Source: Flavobacteriaceae bacterium (GTDB taxonomy: Bacteria; Bacteroidota; Bacteroidia; Flavobacteriales; Weeksellaceae). From it: a stretch of DNA of 64,000 bases. The notes under the pieces were generated by a model, which ran no database searches, was not told the DNA's origin, and saw only the letters and a list, made by a program, of their open reading frames with translations. The DNA is taken from contig JAAYKY010000007.1 of NCBI GenBank assembly GCA_012522185.1, positions 1 through 64,000 of the forward strand, written 5' to 3'. The translations under genes were made by a program, and so were the position numbers. Positions 277 through 10,159 of this stretch are shown piece after piece; positions within the stretch are counted from its first letter, which is position 1, and each line of letters starts with the position of its first letter.

Positions 277-1881
277 TTAAATCGGCTTTAATCCTAACTC
301 TCTCAAATATTCATTATGTTTATTTGTACTACTGTTAATTTCTCTTTCAATTTTTTCCAATTTGGTATGAACCTCATTTAAATTAACAATAGGTTCAGGT
401 TCTGCTGTACTTACATACCTTGAAATATTCAGGTTGTAGCCGTTTTTTTCGATTTCTTCCAAGGAAACTTTACGAGAATATCGCTCGTGCTCTTGTCGGA
501 ATTGGTAGGTTTCTACAATGTCTTTAATATGGTCTTCACTTAAACTATTTTGGCGTTTGTTCTTTTCAAAATGTTCGGCAGCATTGATGAACAATACGTC
601 TTCCTCTTTTTTACATTTTTTCAAAACCAAAATACAAACGGGAATTCCTGTCGAATAAAACAAATTGGAAGGCAATCCAATCACCGTATCAATATGATTG
701 TCTTTTAAAAGCTTGGTTCGTATGCGTTCTTCTGCACCACCACGGAACAGAACACCGTGTGGCAAAATAATCGCCATCGTTCCATCTTCTTTTAGAAAAT
801 GAAAACCGTGTAACAAGAAAGCAAAGTCGGCAGCTGACTTGGGTGCTAAACCATAACTTTTGAAACGAAAATCTTCTCCCATCGCCTCATTCGATTCCCA
901 ACGTAAACTAAATGGCGGATTTGCCACAATGGCATCAAACTCTATTTTTTTACTCGGGTTCATTTCATTTAATAAATCCCATTGATTGAGCAAAGTATCT
1001 CCGTGAAAGATTTCAAACTCAGTATCTTTCATTCCGTGCAAAAGCATATTCATTCGGGCGAGGTTGTAGGTTGTTACATTCTTCTCTTGCCCGTAAATCT
1101 TACCCACACTTCCTTTGTTTTCTTTGATTTTATGGCGAACATTGAGAAGCAAAGAACCCGAACCACAGGCAAAATCCAGTATTTTGTCCAATTTATCTTT
1201 TTTACCCGATTCAGGGTTTTGGCTGTCCAAAGTTACAATCTCTGAGAGTATGGTAGAGATTTGCTGAGGCGTATAAAACTCTCCTGCCTTTTTACCTGAA
1301 CCGGCTGCAAACTGACCGATTAAATATTCGTAAGCATCGCCCATCGCATCGATGTCTTTGGAAAAGCCAGCAATGCCTTCGGCTATTTTTTGAATAATGG
1401 TACAAAGCTTTTTATTCCGTTCGGTAGGCGTTTTTCCCAGTTTTTCGGAATTGAGGTTAATCTCCGAGAACAAACCTTGAAAGGCACTGTCAAAAGATTC
1501 GTTTTCTATGTAGCGAAAACCCGCTTCAAGCGTACTCAATAAATCACCATTTTGTGTGCGAGCCATATCCGCAATCGTATCCCATAAATATTGAGGTTCT
1601 ATGACATAATGCACCTTTCTACGCATTTGCTGTTCAAAATCCTTGATGTCATCTGGATTTTCGGCATACCATTTTTGCAAAGGTGTTTTGTAGCCGTTTT
1701 CTTTCGGATAATCTCTTCCCAATTCCTTTTTAGCTGCCTCTTCGTAATTCAAAGATAAATACCGAAGAAAGAGAAACGAAAGCATATAATCTCGAAAATC
1801 ATCTGCATTCATTGCTCCGCGTAATTCATCAGCAATAGCCCAAAGTGTTTTCCCTAATTGTTGTTGTTCTTTTTGTGTCAT
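277..1881 (-). CDS. hsdM: Type I restriction-modification system DNA methyltransferase subunit (HsdM)
   Basis: Motifs DFACGSGSLLLNV and NPPF, HsdM N-terminal region, 534 aa. Confidence 0.95.
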   Translation of the reverse strand: MTQKEQQQLGKTLWAIADELRGAMNADDFRDYMLSFLFLRYLSLNYEEAAKKELGRDYPKENGYKTPLQKWYAENPDDIKDFEQQMRRKVHYVIEPQYLWDTIADMARTQNGDLLSTLEAGFRYIENESFDSAFQGLFSEINLNSEKLGKTPTERNKKLCTIIQKIAEGIAGFSKDIDAMGDAYEYLIGQFAAGSGKKAGEFYTPQQISTILSEIVTLDSQNPESGKKDKLDKILDFACGSGSLLLNVRHKIKENKGSVGKIYGQEKNVTTYNLARMNMLLHGMKDTEFEIFHGDTLLNQWDLLNEMNPSKKIEFDAIVANPPFSLRWESNEAMGEDFRFKSYGLAPKSAADFAFLLHGFHFLKEDGTMAIILPHGVLFRGGAEERIRTKLLKDNHIDTVIGLPSNLFYSTGIPVCILVLKKCKKEEDVLFINAAEHFEKNKRQNSLSEDHIKDIVETYQFRQEHERYSRKVSLEEIEKNGYNLNISRYVSTAEPEPIVNLNEVHTKLEKIEREINSSTNKHNEYLRELGLKPI

Positions 1882-3041
1882 TATGCTGTTAGTTCTTTTT
1901 GTTTGTCTTCTACAAATATTTTTGGTAAATAAAACTCATATTTTTCGAGAAAACTATTTAAAATTCTTTTAAATAAATCTTTATTATCTTCTCCCATTTC
2001 TTTTGGATCAAAAACAGAATACTTCCCATGACTGAATAGTTGTAAAGCTCTTTCAAAAAGCACTTCATCATCTAACCCATCAATACATTTATCAATTTTT
2101 TCGTACCCAAAAAATGTTGCAGTCTTTTCGAGAATACTTCTTAGTGAATTAAAATGAAACGTATAAATTTTATTTGAATCTGCGACCTTTCTTAACTCAC
2201 TTAATATAGCAATATGATGGAAGAATGGGGTATCTGTTGTGGTTTGAAGAACATAACCTTCATTTCCTTTATTATGAAGAAAATATCTTTTACTTTTAAT
2301 TCTTCTGCCAAATTCATTAAACAATATATTGTAAAACAAACTATGGTGTGTTGATATTACTGTTTTGACACTTACCTTTTGCTTTCCTTCAGCATCTTCC
2401 ACAATTAGTAAATTGGCTAAGTCACAGGCAACAGCAATTGCGTTATTCTCATCTAGGGATGAAATAGGGTCATCAATATAAATAAACTTTACCCAACTGT
2501 AAGCAGGGTCTTTATCTATAACTAATTGACAGATTGCCAGAAAGAAGCTCCAAATAAAAAGAGTTTCTTCTCCTCTTGAGATTTTAATATTTTCAACTTC
2601 TTTCGTTTCCTCATCGACAACAATCTCTCTTGAAAAGGAGACTTTTGAATTTTCATAATCTATGTGGAACTTTACATCAACATAATTATTAAAAAATACC
2701 GCTATTTTTGAATCTAACGCCAGCTCATGTAATCCGCTAAAAAACATAGACTTGGAGTTCATTTTTAAAAACCTTTCTGAATCATTTTCTAAATCATTTT
2801 CCCAATAAAATAAGTCCTCGGTGAAAGCATTGAAATATAAAGTATCTCTGCTATGTAAATTAGTGTCTTCATCAAGAACCTTCCCTAATTCTTTAAACTT
2901 CATTGACAATCTAGTTTTTCCTGTTCTATTGTGTGCAAAAAATAGAACTAAATCTTTCATACTTCGATTATCCCCCAATAAGTCTTTACGAAAATGTTGG
3001 GCTATGTCAGAAAGGCTATTAAAGTCAATTGTTGAATTCAT
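1881..3041 (-). CDS. prrC: PrrC-type anticodon nuclease (ABC-ATPase-like N-terminus plus RNase domain)
   Basis: Walker-A-like AHNRTGKT, YFNAFTEDLFYWENDL, ISRGEE, Walker-B IYIDDPISSLD, C-terminal LRSILEKTATFFGY...FSHGKYS; 386 aa; start shares a base with the hsdM junction (TAATG). Confidence 0.88.
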   Translation of the reverse strand: MNSTIDFNSLSDIAQHFRKDLLGDNRSMKDLVLFFAHNRTGKTRLSMKFKELGKVLDEDTNLHSRDTLYFNAFTEDLFYWENDLENDSERFLKMNSKSMFFSGLHELALDSKIAVFFNNYVDVKFHIDYENSKVSFSREIVVDEETKEVENIKISRGEETLFIWSFFLAICQLVIDKDPAYSWVKFIYIDDPISSLDENNAIAVACDLANLLIVEDAEGKQKVSVKTVISTHHSLFYNILFNEFGRRIKSKRYFLHNKGNEGYVLQTTTDTPFFHHIAILSELRKVADSNKIYTFHFNSLRSILEKTATFFGYEKIDKCIDGLDDEVLFERALQLFSHGKYSVFDPKEMGEDNKDLFKRILNSFLEKYEFYLPKIFVEDKQKELTA

Positions 3042-3060: not shown

Positions 3061-3429
3061 TTATAAATATGCAAATGATTGTGGAGGCAACAAATCAAAC
3101 TCTTTTTTCAGATCAAGAGGTTCATTGTACATTTTTGCCTTTTTAATCTTTATCGCATAAGCAGTTTCCCTATTTGAAAAATAATCATTGAAAAAATCCT
3201 CTGAAATCCCTGATTTATCTCTTGTTTTTCTCCATATATTTTCAGGAGTAGAATTTAAAATGTCTTCTATTTCAAATTCTCCAATTACTTTCTGAACAGG
3301 AGAAGAAGCATATACTATTACTGTTGTAATATTAGGTCGTTTGAAAATGACCTTTCTAAATTCATATTTCTTTGTGCCATCAAAAATTTTGAAGGCAAAT
3401 TCTGGTTTAATCGATAATAAAACTTTCAT
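3061..3429 (-). CDS. ASCH-domain (PUA-like) protein
   Basis: LLSIKPEFAFKIFDGTKKYEFRK ... VYASSPVQKVIGEFEIEDIL is typical of the ASCH family. Confidence 0.75.
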   Translation of the reverse strand: MKVLLSIKPEFAFKIFDGTKKYEFRKVIFKRPNITTVIVYASSPVQKVIGEFEIEDILNSTPENIWRKTRDKSGISEDFFNDYFSNRETAYAIKIKKAKMYNEPLDLKKEFDLLPPQSFAYL

Positions 3430-4909
3430 CGCTTCTTGTTGCTTTTAATATTGTTTCCAATTGTTCTGTTGTTATCTTTTTAAATCCTCTAGGTGCATCA
3501 TTTATACCATTTAGAATTTTAAGGTCTATTAACTCTTTCATATTTATACGATGAGGAAATGAGTAAACAAAAAGAAATTTCACTACGAAAGGTTTACTTT
3601 TTGAGTAATTCCACATTGCACGAAGTTGATTTTCAGGAAAGACACTATTCTTACGGCAATGCAATACAAACTCCTCCTCATTATCAAATTCATATCGCAC
3701 TTCATCTGTAATACCAATACTCGTAACGACACTGTGATAATATCCACCTGTTCTATAAAAAATCAAAATATCTCCTTTTTGAGGATGTGGTTCAAAAGCT
3801 CTTGAAACATATACTTTGCTAATACTATTCCTATGAGGGAAATCTTCAATAAAATCCTCCGGTGATTCAGTATTTAAAATGGAATCTGGTAAAAGTTCCG
3901 TATGATATTCTGGATAGATAGGTACTATAAAACAATCGTTACCTTTTGAAATATAAGGATAATGGTGTTTTAAATTAGTACTACTTATTTGCTTACTAAA
4001 ATCTCGTACATATACTAATTCGTCATCCTTTTTACCCCATAATATAAAACCCCATTGCTCAAATAAATCTATTAATCTTCTTTGTTCATCTCTTTTGTCA
4101 AAAATAGTTACATATATTTCATCTACTTTATTTTTTAAAGCATTGTCAAAAATAATTTTCATAAACCGTTCTCCTAATCTGAAGCCGTTGTTTATAACTT
4201 TAAATGTGCCTATTTTTAATCTTCTTTTAGGAAGAAAAGAAGGAGTTATATCATGATAACTTTCTGTCTGGTCTTCTATTTTCAGATAAAGAAAAGAAAG
4301 AATTAAACCATTCTTTGAGTTAACAGTTATATAAGCTTCTTCATCAAATTTTCTAATAAACCATTTTTCAAAACCATCATAATCTTCTTTTAAGCTTGCA
4401 AAGAAATCATCATCAAGACTAATTCTTCCAAATTTTAGTTTCTGAACATTTAAGACTTTATAATCTACTAAGTCAGGGTGTTCAGCAAAGATTTTTTCTA
4501 AAAATTTATCTATTGTAAATACTTTATCATCGATTTCTAAATCTTTAGCTTTACGATGAATTTTTTTGTCTTCCGTAATTAAAATATCAACTCTTCCTAC
4601 AAAAACCTCATTTAAAAACTGCGTATCTATTCTATCATTTTCATTAGTATCATCTTTCTCGGATACTTTCATCACCTCAGGTTGCATTGGTGAGGGAATA
4701 TCTATTTTTTCATAACTCTCCACTTTTATATTAAAGGTATTTACTGTGTTCTTATCCTGATACTTTTCAAGTTCTCTTATAGAATAAGAATGAATACACT
4801 TTGTATATTTTGCTCTTTCCAACCAACGATAAAGTATCCCAACATCTTGATTTAAAACACGAGATGCTTCACGATGAATAATAATATTTGTATCTAAAAG
4901 TGCTTTCAT
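3407..4909 (-). CDS. Multidomain protein: N-terminal PIN nuclease-like, central GNAT-like, C-terminal PUA/EVE-like
   Basis: MKALLDTNIIIH and DILITEDKKIHRKA (PIN acidic motifs); FRLGERFMKIIFDNALKNKVDEIYVTIF (GNAT-like); KGDILIFYRTGGYYHSVVTSIGI (PUA-like); overlaps the ASCH gene by 23 nt. Confidence 0.72.
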   Translation of the reverse strand: MKALLDTNIIIHREASRVLNQDVGILYRWLERAKYTKCIHSYSIRELEKYQDKNTVNTFNIKVESYEKIDIPSPMQPEVMKVSEKDDTNENDRIDTQFLNEVFVGRVDILITEDKKIHRKAKDLEIDDKVFTIDKFLEKIFAEHPDLVDYKVLNVQKLKFGRISLDDDFFASLKEDYDGFEKWFIRKFDEEAYITVNSKNGLILSFLYLKIEDQTESYHDITPSFLPKRRLKIGTFKVINNGFRLGERFMKIIFDNALKNKVDEIYVTIFDKRDEQRRLIDLFEQWGFILWGKKDDELVYVRDFSKQISSTNLKHHYPYISKGNDCFIVPIYPEYHTELLPDSILNTESPEDFIEDFPHRNSISKVYVSRAFEPHPQKGDILIFYRTGGYYHSVVTSIGITDEVRYEFDNEEEFVLHCRKNSVFPENQLRAMWNYSKSKPFVVKFLFVYSFPHRINMKELIDLKILNGINDAPRGFKKITTEQLETILKATRSDESFIID

Positions 4910-4915
4910 ATTTTA

Positions 4916-6157
4916 CTATTTAACTTTCGGAAACAACCCCTGCATCAAACCTTTTTTATGTTCTTTTAATTGTTCTATTTTCTCTGCTTGCGCTGTGATG
5001 AGCTCATCTAAAGCAGAAAGGCAAGAAGCGATTTTTTGTTGTTCTTCTTTCTGAGGTGATAGGGTTGGAATATTAGTTATTTCGTTTTTTCCGATTTCTT
5101 TAAATGTTGAGCCAGATGCTCTTTTTATAAGAGCTTCTTTATTTTGTAATATCCAATACAACCAGAATGTGTTAACTTCCGTACTGTGCACAATCAATGA
5201 CTGAAAACCTTGATTTGTTGTGCATTCTTCTTCCGTAATTGATACATCACCAATTGTTGCTCTTGTTGTAATTAAAATTGTTCCTTTGGGTAAAAGTTTA
5301 GCCGATGAATTTTTTAAACCTTGCTCCGTTATTTTCCTAATGCTACTTTTTAATTTACCGTTTTTAATCTCTGTTGGAGTGTACCAAAGAATTTCTCCAT
5401 CCCAATATTCTTGCTTTGAAGTATCGGGAGTGCCTCCTCCTACAAAATCACCAACTTCTCCCAAGCTTTTCTCCACCCACTCCCCATCTTTCTCAAACTC
5501 TTTAAATCGATACTTAGGTACTTTTTTACCCTCTTGAGGGAAAAGATTTTGCATCAAGCCTTTTTTGTGGTCTTTGAGCAAATCCATTTTTTGGCTGTGA
5601 GCTTCAATTACTTCATCTAAAGAAGAAAGACAAGATGCTATTTTTTGTTGCTCTTTGGGTAGTTTAGGTTTTTGAATAGTAAACTTTTCAAATGCAGTTT
5701 TGTTTATTATCGGTACAGCTGTTTGTCCAGCCAAATTTTTAAGTTGTACAATGTTCCTTGAAATGGCATAATAAACAAATTCATAATGGTTTGATGTGTT
5801 ACATACAATAGAATTGATTTGTTGATTAGTTGCACATTCAACTTTATTAATGCCATTTAAACCAATGGAAGCAATACAGGTTACTAAAATTGAGTTTTTG
5901 GGAATTACCCTTGTTCTCTCTTTGCCTTTTTCTGTGAGTTTTAGGACTGAATTATAAATATATTTTTCTTTAAAGTCTTGTGCTGTTACCCAAACAAAAT
6001 CACCACCCCAATATTCACTTTCTTCTTTACTTGGAGTACCACCAGTAATAACATTTCCAACTGAATCAATCGAAATATCTTCCCATTCTCCCTCATTCTT
6101 AAACTCAGGAAAACGCAATGAGGGTATTAATTTATTTTCTTTCTTATTCATTCTCAA
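4916..6157 (-). CDS. hsdS: Type I restriction-modification system specificity subunit (HsdS), two TRDs
   Basis: Two TRD halves, each followed by the spacer QQKIASCLSxLDExI...HKKGLMQxLFP. Confidence 0.93.
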   Translation of the reverse strand: MRMNKKENKLIPSLRFPEFKNEGEWEDISIDSVGNVITGGTPSKEESEYWGGDFVWVTAQDFKEKYIYNSVLKLTEKGKERTRVIPKNSILVTCIASIGLNGINKVECATNQQINSIVCNTSNHYEFVYYAISRNIVQLKNLAGQTAVPIINKTAFEKFTIQKPKLPKEQQKIASCLSSLDEVIEAHSQKMDLLKDHKKGLMQNLFPQEGKKVPKYRFKEFEKDGEWVEKSLGEVGDFVGGGTPDTSKQEYWDGEILWYTPTEIKNGKLKSSIRKITEQGLKNSSAKLLPKGTILITTRATIGDVSITEEECTTNQGFQSLIVHSTEVNTFWLYWILQNKEALIKRASGSTFKEIGKNEITNIPTLSPQKEEQQKIASCLSALDELITAQAEKIEQLKEHKKGLMQGLFPKVK

Positions 6158-7034
6158 TTTCCTTTAAAATAACTTTTCCCCATTCTTCACCAATCTTAGA
6201 AAAAGCAAACCACCTTTTTCCTAAATCTTTGAGCGAAGCTCCCAAATGATATACTTCTGTATTGTCGATAATCAAAAAACGGTCGTGGCTTTTGGTAAAG
6301 GCTTTCAGCTCAAAATTGCCGTATTGTTCGTTGGCTTTTTTTACGTCTAAGGTCAATTGTTTGGTACTGTTTTTAGTTAATAAAAGCACCTTTACCGCTT
6401 TTGTTTTCTTGGATAGATGCGTTAAGGTACTTTCGTCTATGTAATTATCAATTAATACAATGTTTTTCTTAGCAGAGCGAATGATTTTGGAAGCCAATTC
6501 ATACGCATCAAATATTTGTCCGTCAAAGAAAACGCCTTGTGTAGGAATAATATCTTTGTTTTCTAATGCTTTAAAAACTTTTTCAAATTTTTGGTCAGTT
6601 TGCAATTGTTTACGTTCAATGCTGTCCATACGCTGTAACAATCCACTATGGTTGGCAATGAGTTTGCGCATTTCTACAAAAGTATTGATAATTTGAATGC
6701 TTACTTTTACAGCCACATCACTACGCAACACGGCAGAAAGCATTGCTACACCTTGTTCGGTAAAAGCGTAAGGATTTACCGAAGAATGCTTTAGGGATTC
6801 GAACCGGTCACAATTTGTGACTAGTTCTATTTTTTCATTGTCAGTAAGTTGAAAACGAAACTGTTGCGGAAACCTTTCTATGTTCCGCTTGACGGCTTGA
6901 TTTAAAACTTTAGTCTCCACCTGATACATTTCCGCTAAATCACGGTCAAGCATAACTTGCAACCCTCGAATGGTAAAAATTCTATTTTCTATTTCTTCCT
7001 GTGATAGGATAGCATTATCTCCCATTTTACACAA
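6144..7034 (-). CDS. ORF6N-domain protein with C-terminal PLD-like segment
   Basis: N-terminus IFTIRGLQVMLDRDLAEMYQVETKVLNQAVKRNIERFPQQFRFQLT (ORF6N); C-terminal SHDRFLIIDNTEVYHLGASLKDLGKRW; overlaps hsdS by 14 nt. Confidence 0.8.
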   Translation of the reverse strand: MCKMGDNAILSQEEIENRIFTIRGLQVMLDRDLAEMYQVETKVLNQAVKRNIERFPQQFRFQLTDNEKIELVTNCDRFESLKHSSVNPYAFTEQGVAMLSAVLRSDVAVKVSIQIINTFVEMRKLIANHSGLLQRMDSIERKQLQTDQKFEKVFKALENKDIIPTQGVFFDGQIFDAYELASKIIRSAKKNIVLIDNYIDESTLTHLSKKTKAVKVLLLTKNSTKQLTLDVKKANEQYGNFELKAFTKSHDRFLIIDNTEVYHLGASLKDLGKRWFAFSKIGEEWGKVILKEIENE

Positions 7035-7180: not shown

Positions 7181-10159
7181 TTACTCATAAGCTGCCAATC
7201 CACTAATATCTCTTCCTTGCGCCAATTTTTTTAATTGCGGCACCAAGTCTTCCATAAGTTCCAATTCCTTTATCCTGCGTTCTTTCCAACTCAAATCCAA
7301 TGGAGCTAAAAGATCTGTCAATTTTTCTCCGTCAAAAATCATTCGGCTCATAACTTTTTCTACAAAAGCTTTTAAATCTGCTGTTTGCAATCCATTTTTA
7401 TTGGCAATTGCAGCTAATTCTTTGTTGTATTTTTCGTCTTTAAATTTGTCATACCCCTTGCGTAGTGCTGCTACATCTTGCCCTTGGTTCCAATCCAAAC
7501 TGTTGATGTATTCGGTTAAGTCTTCTTCTTCATCCATCATATTTGAATGTGACTTTAACAAAGCAATCACCTGTGCTTTGGTCATTTTCTGTTTGGATGG
7601 TTTTTGTTGTGTACTATCGGCGATCAGATTCATAATGTAATCGTAATCAATTACAGCAGAAGCAAAGAGTACAAATTCAAAATCTAATTGTTGAATTTCC
7701 TCCGGTGTATTTTCACCTTCTTTTTGACGTCGCTTTTGAAAGTTTTTAGCCGTTTCAATATAGTTACTGCGAAACTCCTGAAAAATAGGTGTTGGCAAAA
7801 TATCTTCAATAACCGCCTTTTGCTCTTCAGTGATGTCAGTATATTGGTCAAGTTGTGTTTTAAGTCGCTGTACTTCCTTAAAGTTTTGCACAAAAGCAAT
7901 ACGCGCAGCATCTCCTTTTAGATTGTAAACTTCCTGCGGTTCATAAGCGCCAGTGTTTTCCTGCATAAATACACCTAATTTCTCCACTGCTTCTTTAAAT
8001 TTGTCAATCACCACAGGCGCAGGCTCTACCAACCAAATTTCTCTTGATTTTTCTTTATCTTCTTCTCCTGAAAACAAAGCGATGGCTTGGTTTACTGCAT
8101 CTTGCTGCGAACGAAAATCCAATATATTCCCATAAGGCTTGCTGTCGTTTAACACACGATTCGTGCGTGAAAATGCTTGAATTAATCCGTGGTATTTCAG
8201 ATTTTTATCTACATAAAGTGTATTGAGATACTTGCTGTCAAAACCCGTGAGCAACATATCCACTACAATGGTTATGTCTATTTTATTTTTATGAGGATAG
8301 TCTTTGCTGCTGTATTTCTGGTTTTTAATACGGCTTTGCACATCTTGATAATACAAATCAAAATCACTGAGGCTGTGATTGGTCCCAAATTGTTGATTGT
8401 AATCGGTAATTATTTCCGTTAAGGCTTTTTTCTTCTCTTCAGGATTTTGTTTGTTGTCTTCTTTTTCTTGGGCCAAATCCTCTTGTATTTGTTGAATGTC
8501 TTTGTTGCCCTCAGCAGGAGGCGAAAACACACAAGCGATGTTCAAAGGTGTAAAATCTGGATTTTCCTCCTTTTTATTTTTCTGAATTTCATTAAAGAGT
8601 TTGTAATATTCAATAGCATTATTGATAGAGGCCGTAGCTAAAATGGCATTGAACTTTCGATTGTTTGTAGCCGAATTATGTTTGTCCAAAATAGCTTCTA
8701 CCACAGCTTGTTGTGTAATGGCTTCACCTTGTTTCGCAGGTTGTGAACCTTCGCCTTTGAAATAATCAATATGGAATTTCAAAACATTTCTGTCGTCTAT
8801 GGCGTGAGTAATCGTATAGGCGTGTAATTGTTTTTCAAAAATATCTTCGGTCGTTTTGTAGGTTTCAAATTCACCTTCTCTAATTTTTTGTGTAGAATTC
8901 TCTTCAAAAATGGGTGTCCCCGTAAATCCAAATAATTGCGCATTTGGAAAAAACTCTTTTATGGCTCTGTGATTTTCTCCAAATTGCGAGCGGTGGCATT
9001 CGTCAAAAATAAATACAATGCGTTTGTTGCTCAACGGCTGCAGGCGTTCTTTGTAATTCCTTTGGTTGGTTCCATCAAGCGCCAAGCCTAACTTTTGAAT
9101 GGTCGTAACAATGACTTTATCGGCATAATTGGTAGAGAGTAATCGTCTGACCAATGTTTCGGTATTGGTATTTTCTTCTACACTACCTTCCTGAAATTTA
9201 TTGAATTCTTCACGGGTTTGTCGGTCAAGGTCTTTCCGATCCACTACAAACAAACACTTTTCAATATCAGGGTTATTCTTTAAAAGTGTAGAAGCTTTAA
9301 ACGAAGTCAAGGTTTTCCCACTTCCCGTTGTATGCCAGATATAACCGTTGCCTCGATTATCTTTTATACAGTCCACAATGGCTTTTACTGCATAGACTTG
9401 ATAAGGTCGCATCACGAGTATTTTCTGCTCACTTTGCACCAATACCATATATTTACTAATCATTTCACCCAGCGTACACTTGGGCAAAAACTTTTCAGTA
9501 AAAGTGATAAGGTCGTTGATTTTTTTGTTGTTAATGTCAGCCAATTCATATACAGGCAAAAATTGTTCGTCTGCATTGAAAGCAAAGTGTTGGTTTTTGT
9601 TATTGGCAAAATACAAAGTTCGATTGCCGTTACTCACAATAAACAACTGCATAAAACACAACAAGGAATTACCGTAGCCATTTCCTGGTTCGTTTTTATA
9701 ATCTACAATTTGCTGCATCGCCCTACGATGTGAAATATCTCCTTTTTTCAGTTCGATTTGCACCAGAGGTAAGCCGTTGATGAGCAGGATAACATCATAC
9801 CGCTGAAAACTATTCTCGGTATTAATCCGCAATTGATTGATGACTTCAAATTCATTTTTGCACCAATCTTTAATGTTTACTAAAGTATAATGCAATGGCG
9901 TACCATCTTCCCGCTGAAAGTATTGATTTTCCCGTAATAACTTTGAAGCTTCAAAAACGTCGGGTTTAATTATTTCTTCTCGCAACCGCAAAAATTCACT
10001 GTCCGTTAATCGCACCCGATTTAATGTTTCAAATTTTTGACGAAAATTTTGTTCGAGTGTTTTTCGGTCAATGATATCCGGTCGGCTAGTATATTTTAAG
10101 TTTTTGAGTTGTTCAATGAAGCCTAACTCTATCAGGTTTTCTTTATTCATTTTTCCCAA
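7181..10159 (-). CDS. hsdR: Type I restriction endonuclease subunit R (HsdR)
   Basis: HTTGSGKT, DECHRSQFG, GFTGTP helicase motifs; 992 aa; N-terminal nuclease region with QIELKKGD. Confidence 0.95.
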   Translation of the reverse strand: MGKMNKENLIELGFIEQLKNLKYTSRPDIIDRKTLEQNFRQKFETLNRVRLTDSEFLRLREEIIKPDVFEASKLLRENQYFQREDGTPLHYTLVNIKDWCKNEFEVINQLRINTENSFQRYDVILLINGLPLVQIELKKGDISHRRAMQQIVDYKNEPGNGYGNSLLCFMQLFIVSNGNRTLYFANNKNQHFAFNADEQFLPVYELADINNKKINDLITFTEKFLPKCTLGEMISKYMVLVQSEQKILVMRPYQVYAVKAIVDCIKDNRGNGYIWHTTGSGKTLTSFKASTLLKNNPDIEKCLFVVDRKDLDRQTREEFNKFQEGSVEENTNTETLVRRLLSTNYADKVIVTTIQKLGLALDGTNQRNYKERLQPLSNKRIVFIFDECHRSQFGENHRAIKEFFPNAQLFGFTGTPIFEENSTQKIREGEFETYKTTEDIFEKQLHAYTITHAIDDRNVLKFHIDYFKGEGSQPAKQGEAITQQAVVEAILDKHNSATNNRKFNAILATASINNAIEYYKLFNEIQKNKKEENPDFTPLNIACVFSPPAEGNKDIQQIQEDLAQEKEDNKQNPEEKKKALTEIITDYNQQFGTNHSLSDFDLYYQDVQSRIKNQKYSSKDYPHKNKIDITIVVDMLLTGFDSKYLNTLYVDKNLKYHGLIQAFSRTNRVLNDSKPYGNILDFRSQQDAVNQAIALFSGEEDKEKSREIWLVEPAPVVIDKFKEAVEKLGVFMQENTGAYEPQEVYNLKGDAARIAFVQNFKEVQRLKTQLDQYTDITEEQKAVIEDILPTPIFQEFRSNYIETAKNFQKRRQKEGENTPEEIQQLDFEFVLFASAVIDYDYIMNLIADSTQQKPSKQKMTKAQVIALLKSHSNMMDEEEDLTEYINSLDWNQGQDVAALRKGYDKFKDEKYNKELAAIANKNGLQTADLKAFVEKVMSRMIFDGEKLTDLLAPLDLSWKERRIKELELMEDLVPQLKKLAQGRDISGLAAYE

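What the first reader, a model, noticed from the sequence alone, without database searches (positions are those of the whole stretch)
1881..3041. PrrC-type anticodon nuclease embedded in a Bacteroidota type I RM operon with the RNase triad intact
Seen: the protein matches PrrC along its length by recalled motifs: AHNRTGKT, NAFTEDLFYW(E/D)NDL, IS(R/K)GEE, IDDP(I/V)SSLD and LRSILEKTATFFGY. R301, E305 and H338 have spacing like the R320/E324/H356 triad described for E. coli PrrC, and the R and H codons were checked at 2139-2141 and 2028-2030. Its stop overlaps the hsdM start (TAATG). Established: E. coli PrrC is held silent by the EcoprrI type Ic HsdRMS complex and cleaves tRNA-Lys when a phage peptide disables restriction. 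Inference: this is a second-line abortive-infection trap in a Flavobacteriia-like host, coupled translationally to HsdM.
Basis: partly seen in the sequence, partly recalled or inferred. Interest (0 to 1): 0.85.

Follow-up and report, generated by a model that had tools for sequence, protein, structure and literature searches.

The report
PrrC tRNA-cutting toxin in restriction operon
A bacterium related to Flavobacterium carries, inside a DNA-restriction gene cluster, an ordinary and apparently intact copy of PrrC, a known suicide enzyme that cuts a transfer RNA when a virus disables restriction; the only unusual point is that a second candidate defence module sits between it and the specificity gene.

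Summary
The 386-aa protein matches the PADLOC PrrC model full length (E 5e-129). It aligns with an E. coli PrrC of 396 aa, in which Arg320, Glu324, His356 and Asp287 fall at exactly those numbers; the window equivalents are R301, E305, H338 and D270. The triad is present in every homologue of 113 that reaches those columns. Homologues at 50-75% identity occur in many phyla, nearly all in type Ic-like loci ordered hsdR-hsdS-prrC-hsdM. A Klebsiella system with that order has been shown by others to target tRNA-Lys and block phage (PMC11555353). This is therefore a new member of a known kind, with no new mechanism.

The P-loop reads AHN-R-TGKT where 96 of 113 homologues have Gly; Arg recurs in five others, so it is a natural variant of unknown effect. 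A PIN-GNAT-EVE plus ASCH gene pair (PADLOC PDC-M11A/B) separates hsdS from prrC, a junction otherwise almost never interrupted. Cleavage, its tRNA-Lys target and HsdRMS silencing are inferred here, not shown.

The parts
1881..3041 (-). prrC: 386-aa ABC-ATPase/HEPN anticodon nuclease (RSCM clade)
   Evidence: PADLOC PDLC02360 E 5e-129, residues 6-374; 34% identity to E. coli PrrC, 50% to a K. quasipneumoniae plasmid PrrC; predicted fold mean pLDDT 83
2913..2936 (-). Walker A, AHNRTGKT; Arg39 codon AGA at 2925-2927
   Evidence: G41, K42 and T43 invariant; Arg39 shared by 5 of 113 homologues, Gly in 96
2793..2837 (-). YFNAFTEDLFYWEND, presumed to be the 15-residue PrrC box
   Evidence: invariant or nearly so in 113 homologues; a 15-residue 'PrrC box' is reported as shared by all PrrC proteins (PMC3014915); the identity of this stretch with the box is inferred
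2232..2234 (-). Asp270, equivalent of E. coli PrrC Asp287 (wobble-base contact)
   Evidence: three-way alignment; role of Asp287 from PMC3014915
2028..2141 (-). RNase triad R301, E305, H338
   Evidence: present in all homologues that reach these columns (112, 112 and 111 of 113)
277..1881 (-). hsdM, 534 aa; start overlaps prrC stop by one base
   Evidence: TIGR00497 E 6e-117, NPPF motif
3061..3429 (-). PDC-M11B, 122-aa ASCH-like protein inserted between hsdS and prrC
   Evidence: PADLOC E 4e-53; weak Pfam ASCH E 6e-4
3407..4909 (-). PDC-M11A, 500-aa PIN ... EVE protein (GNAT middle part by inference)
   Evidence: PADLOC E 1e-213; Pfam PIN_3 E 7e-4, EVE E 0.011 on the C-terminal piece; architecture described in PMC7641849
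4916..6157 (-). hsdS, two recognition domains
   Evidence: Pfam Methylase_S, two stretches, E 2.5e-58
6144..7034 (-). ORF6N-domain gene (PDC-S05) between hsdR and hsdS
   Evidence: Pfam ORF6N E 5e-32; PADLOC PDC-S05 E 2e-121
7181..10159 (-). hsdR, 992 aa, type IC-like (EcoR124_C domain)
   Evidence: TIGR00348 E 2e-118; PF12008 EcoR124_C E 3e-60

Best explanation
This is a PrrC anticodon nuclease built into a complete type Ic-like restriction-modification locus. The N-terminal two thirds form an SMC/Rad50-like ABC NTPase, and the C-terminal third is a HEPN-type RNase with the Arg-Glu-His triad. The likely cycle is: HsdRMS binds PrrC and keeps it latent; a phage anti-restriction factor, or another disturbance of HsdRMS on unmodified DNA, releases it with nucleotide binding or hydrolysis; it then cuts the anticodon loop of host tRNA (most probably tRNA-Lys) and stops translation so that the infection aborts. 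Shown here by computation: the gene, its motifs, the conserved triad, the complete operon, the clade and its gene order, and a host tRNA-Lys(UUU) with the loop CTTTTAA. Inferred from the family: silencing, activation, cleavage and phage defence.
For: Full-length PADLOC PrrC match, E 5e-129. Triad, Walker B, signature and linchpin His conserved in 113 homologues. Residue-for-residue match to E. coli PrrC R320/E324/H356 and D287. Nearly all close homologues lie in hsdR-hsdS-prrC-hsdM loci. Predicted fold with SMC/Rad50/PtuA-like ABC heads among the best PDB matches. tRNA-Lys with the CTTTTAA loop in the same genome. Literature: PrrC170 from K. quasipneumoniae, same gene order, targets tRNA-Lys, arrests growth and blocks T1 and T7 (PMC11555353); latency and activation of E. 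coli PrrC (PMC3014915); HEPN assignment (PMC3710099).
Against: Arg39 in the P-loop replaces a residue that is Gly in 96 of 113 homologues, and could weaken nucleotide binding; it recurs in five homologues that keep the other motifs, so it is not evidence of decay. The query has a fairly long end branch (0.27 against a median of 0.17). The tRNA-recognition stretch is two residues shorter than in E. coli PrrC, so the substrate could differ. No wet data on this protein.
Confidence: 0.87

Rival explanations
1. It is a PrrC anticodon nuclease held by HsdRMS, but it cuts another tRNA than tRNA-Lys.
For: The stretch equivalent to E. coli PrrC 284-294 differs in sequence and is two residues shorter. 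A review states that substrates may vary because the recognition sequence varies (PMC3014915).
Against: Asp270 aligns with the wobble contact Asp287. The K. quasipneumoniae plasmid PrrC held here has the same DTPFFHH stretch, and a K. quasipneumoniae PrrC with the same gene order targets tRNA-Lys (PMC11555353). The host tRNA-Lys loop is CTTTTAA.
Confidence: 0.15
2. The gene is intact in the RNase domain but crippled in the NTPase by Arg39, so it is a latent toxin that can no longer be activated, tolerated because it is silent.
For: Arg replaces Gly in Walker A (codon AGA, one base from GGA); Gly in 96, and Ala, Ser or Cys in 12, of 113 homologues. Mutations in universally conserved Walker A residues abolish ACNase activity of E. 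coli PrrC (PMC3014915).
Against: Arg at this position occurs in five other full-length homologues, in at least two separate parts of the tree (Arcicella; the Kushneria, Moraxellaceae, Rhizobium, Microvirga group), with the other motifs kept. The position is not among the invariant Walker A residues G41, K42, T43. The query departs from no other column conserved above 90% except C165S, which 8 others share.
Confidence: 0.08
3. A generic SMC-like ATPase of the AAA_13 family without anticodon nuclease activity.
For: Pfam assigns only AAA_13 (E 2e-12); no NCBIfam model matches.
Against: PADLOC PrrC E 5e-129, the conserved C-terminal triad and alignment with E. coli PrrC over the C-terminal region, linkage to hsd genes in nearly every homologue.
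Confidence: 0.02

Closest known systems
PrrC170 of Klebsiella quasipneumoniae (PMC11555353), R-S-PrrC-M order
   Same: Gene order HsdR-HsdS-PrrC-HsdM; a K. quasipneumoniae plasmid PrrC of the same order is 50% identical to the window protein with the same triad and DTPFFHH stretch.
   Different: The published sequence itself was not held here, so identity to that exact allele is not measured. The window locus adds ORF6N and PDC-M11 genes; the Klebsiella plasmid locus has other inserts, between hsdR and hsdS.
E. coli PrrC with EcoprrI (prototype)
   Same: ABC motifs, presumed PrrC box, R-E-H triad, Asp287 equivalent, linkage to a type I system.
   Different: 34% identity, gene order M-S-PrrC-R instead of R-S-PrrC-M, separate clade for proteins of that order; shorter recognition stretch.
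RloC
   Same: ABC ATPase plus the same kind of RNase triad.
   Different: RloC has a zinc-hook coiled-coil insert and a longer spacing (Arg-X3-Glu-X36-52-His, PMC2610378). The window protein has 386 aa, no insert, and 32 residues between E305 and H338.
PDC-M11 / PIN-GNAT-EVE with ASCH partner (PMC7641849)
   Same: The two genes next to prrC are this known pair; association with type I systems is already described.
   Different: Here the pair sits between hsdS and prrC, a junction free of recognised whole genes in the other RSCM loci measured.

Membership tests
PrrC anticodon nuclease | Full-length sequence similarity to PrrC | tested here: met
   PDLC02360 E 5e-129, residues 6-374; 34% identity to E. 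coli PrrC over residues 26-342
[quoted passage not shown]
   Walker A met with one variant residue, Arg39, shared by 5 of 113 homologues
PrrC anticodon nuclease | 15-residue PrrC box in the N-domain | tested here: inconclusive
   YFNAFTEDLFYWEND is conserved across all homologues, but the paper giving the box sequence was not held
PrrC anticodon nuclease | C-terminal Arg-X3-Glu ... His triad | tested here: met
   R301, E305, H338 align with R320, E324, H356; codons checked
PrrC anticodon nuclease | Linkage to a type Ic restriction-modification locus | tested here: met
   hsdR with EcoR124_C domain, hsdS, hsdM intact
PrrC anticodon nuclease | No zinc-hook coiled-coil insert (distinguishes it from RloC) | tested here: met
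   386 aa, no insert in alignment with E. coli PrrC
PrrC anticodon nuclease | Cleaves tRNA in the anticodon loop; silenced by HsdRMS | not testable with these tools
   Needs expression and tRNA sequencing
RloC | CXXC zinc-hook/coiled-coil insert in the ATPase domain | tested here: not met
   No such insert in the 386-aa protein

The most novel reading that the evidence does not exclude
The locus is one linked unit in which HsdRMS controls two separate translation-targeting effectors, PrrC and the PIN-GNAT-EVE/ASCH pair inserted at the hsdS-prrC junction, with the ASCH/EVE readers of modified bases helping to trigger or restrain PrrC.
Probability: 0.07. Interest if true: 0.55.

Novelty: new member of a known kind. 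Interest (0 to 1): 0.2.

Why it matters
It adds one more well-formed PrrC to a widespread clade (R-S-PrrC-M order) for which only a Klebsiella member was found tested in the papers read. It could serve as a Bacteroidota test case for whether tRNA-Lys targeting and HsdRMS silencing hold across phyla. The survey also suggests that one hsd backbone (hsdM mostly 65-81% identical) can carry PrrC proteins only about 29% identical to the window's, a possible handle on how the silencing contact evolves.

Tried and rejected
Dead P-loop: Arg39 first looked unique (24 homologues), which suggested a crippled NTPase or a sequencing error; the wider set showed five more with Arg in at least two lineages, so the idea was demoted to a minor rival.

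M11 as a dedicated PrrC partner: rejected, because none of the more than 80 RSCM loci with a close PrrC holds M11 within the fetched flanks, and none of 11 other M11 loci holds prrC within the fetched flanks.

Low G+C of prrC (30% against 38% for hsdM) as a sign of recent insertion: rejected, because prrC is lower than the hsdM region in most loci, median difference 4 points.

Loss of the tRNA-Lys contact: the first alignment suggested Asp287 had no equivalent; direct alignment with an E. coli PrrC places Asp270 there.

Full report
Observation. The minus-strand ORF 1881-3041 encodes 386 residues from an ATG. The triad codons are at 2139-2141 (R301, AGA), 2127-2129 (E305, GAA) and 2028-2030 (H338, CAT), and the stop shares one base with the hsdM start, TAATG. 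The window is the start of contig C29 of a 2.55-Mb genome.

Identity. PADLOC's PrrC model matches end to end, E 5e-129. Pfam gives only AAA_13 and NCBIfam nothing, so annotation pipelines would call it an AAA family ATPase, as they do for most plasmid relatives. An E. coli plasmid protein annotated as anticodon nuclease, 396 aa, in a locus ordered hsdM-hsdS-prrC-hsdR, has R320, E324, H356 and D287 at exactly the positions published for E. coli PrrC (PMC2610378; PMC3014915). They align with window R301, E305, H338 and D270. Identity is 34%.

Conservation. In 113 distinct homologues, R301, E305 and H338 are conserved in all that reach those columns (112, 112 and 111; the rest are gaps). G41, K42, T43, E158, D190, D191, P192, S195, D197 and H232 are invariant. 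The stretch YFNAFTEDLFYWEND is nearly invariant; it is presumably the 15-residue PrrC box mentioned in PMC3014915, but the source paper was not held.

Family and context. A tree of 112 PrrC proteins splits into three groups. The window protein is in the largest, found in Bacteroidota, Pseudomonadota, Spirochaetota, Bacillota, Chloroflexota and others. In that group the order is hsdR-hsdS-prrC-hsdM almost without exception; a few loci lack hsdS between hsdR and prrC, two of them with hsdS beyond hsdM. The hsdS-prrC junction is nearly always a short overlap or a gap under 10 bases, with one gap of 321 bases and a few values that reflect start-codon choice or a measuring artefact. The prrC-hsdM junction is often a 4-base overlap, with inserts of 0.6-1.7 kb in about ten loci. 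Full-length PrrC genes were found in 19 of 296 Bacteroidota genomes, this one included. Five other genomes of the same genus lack a full-length prrC, so the locus is accessory.

The restriction system itself looks complete: hsdR with the EcoR124_C domain typical of type IC, hsdS with two recognition domains, hsdM with its catalytic motif.

Structure. The AlphaFold model (49 sequences, mean pLDDT 83, pTM 0.74) has an ABC-type N-domain and a helical C-domain of lower confidence. The best PDB matches include retron Eco8 and retron IA proteins, Rad50 and SMC heads, and PtuA, with low TM-scores. This fits an SMC-like head but does not by itself test the nuclease. The HEPN assignment rests on PMC3710099.

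Mechanism. E. coli PrrC is held latent by EcoprrI, freed by the T4 peptide Stp with GTP hydrolysis and dTTP, and cuts tRNA-Lys (PMC3014915). PrrC170 from K. quasipneumoniae, with the same gene order as the window locus, arrests growth, targets tRNA-Lys and protects against T1 and T7 (PMC11555353). A K. quasipneumoniae plasmid PrrC held here is 50% identical to the window protein; whether it is the PrrC170 allele could not be checked. The host genome has a tRNA-Lys(UUU) with the loop CTTTTAA. Silencing, release and cleavage are therefore well-founded inference for the window protein, not shown.

First, Arg39 in the P-loop. Gly in 96 of 113 homologues, Ala, Ser or Cys in 12, Arg in 5: Arcicella, and a group of Kushneria, Moraxellaceae, Rhizobium and Microvirga. 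It is a recurrent natural variant whose effect is unknown. Second, two genes between hsdS and prrC. They match PADLOC candidate PDC-M11A/B, the PIN-GNAT-EVE plus ASCH pair already reported next to type I systems (PMC7641849). The pair moves independently: 11 other genomes of 395 in the phylum carry a substantial M11A, each with M11B close by, and none of those loci contains prrC within the fetched flanks. No RSCM prrC locus examined contains M11. An insertion at this junction is thus unusual, but as a combination of two known modules it does not change what PrrC is.

Verdict. Real, correctly read, intact as far as sequence can tell, and ordinary. A new member of a known kind.

Noticed in passing
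window 3061-4909: PDC-M11A/B (PIN-GNAT-EVE with ASCH partner) inserted between hsdS and prrC, a junction otherwise free of recognised whole genes in the RSCM loci measured; the genes are 28-29% G+C.
   Followed up: partly
window 6144-7034: ORF6N-domain gene (PADLOC PDC-S05) between hsdR and hsdS; the same gene family occurs at that place or just after hsdM in several other RSCM loci.
   Followed up: no
L011-L019: A third PrrC clade, about 29-32% identical to the window protein, sits at the same hsdS-hsdM junction of loci whose hsdM is mostly 65-81% identical to the window's. Its recognition stretch lacks an evident Asp287 equivalent. The same backbone seems to accept very different PrrC proteins, perhaps with other tRNA targets.
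   Followed up: partly
window 2925-2927: Arg39 (AGA) in Walker A where most homologues have Gly; recurrent in at least two lineages.
   Followed up: yes
L171 467-4254: K. quasipneumoniae IncA plasmid RSCM locus carries a TrlF-family ATPase gene and an RNA-binding-domain gene between hsdR and hsdS: another cargo slot in the same kind of locus.
   Followed up: no
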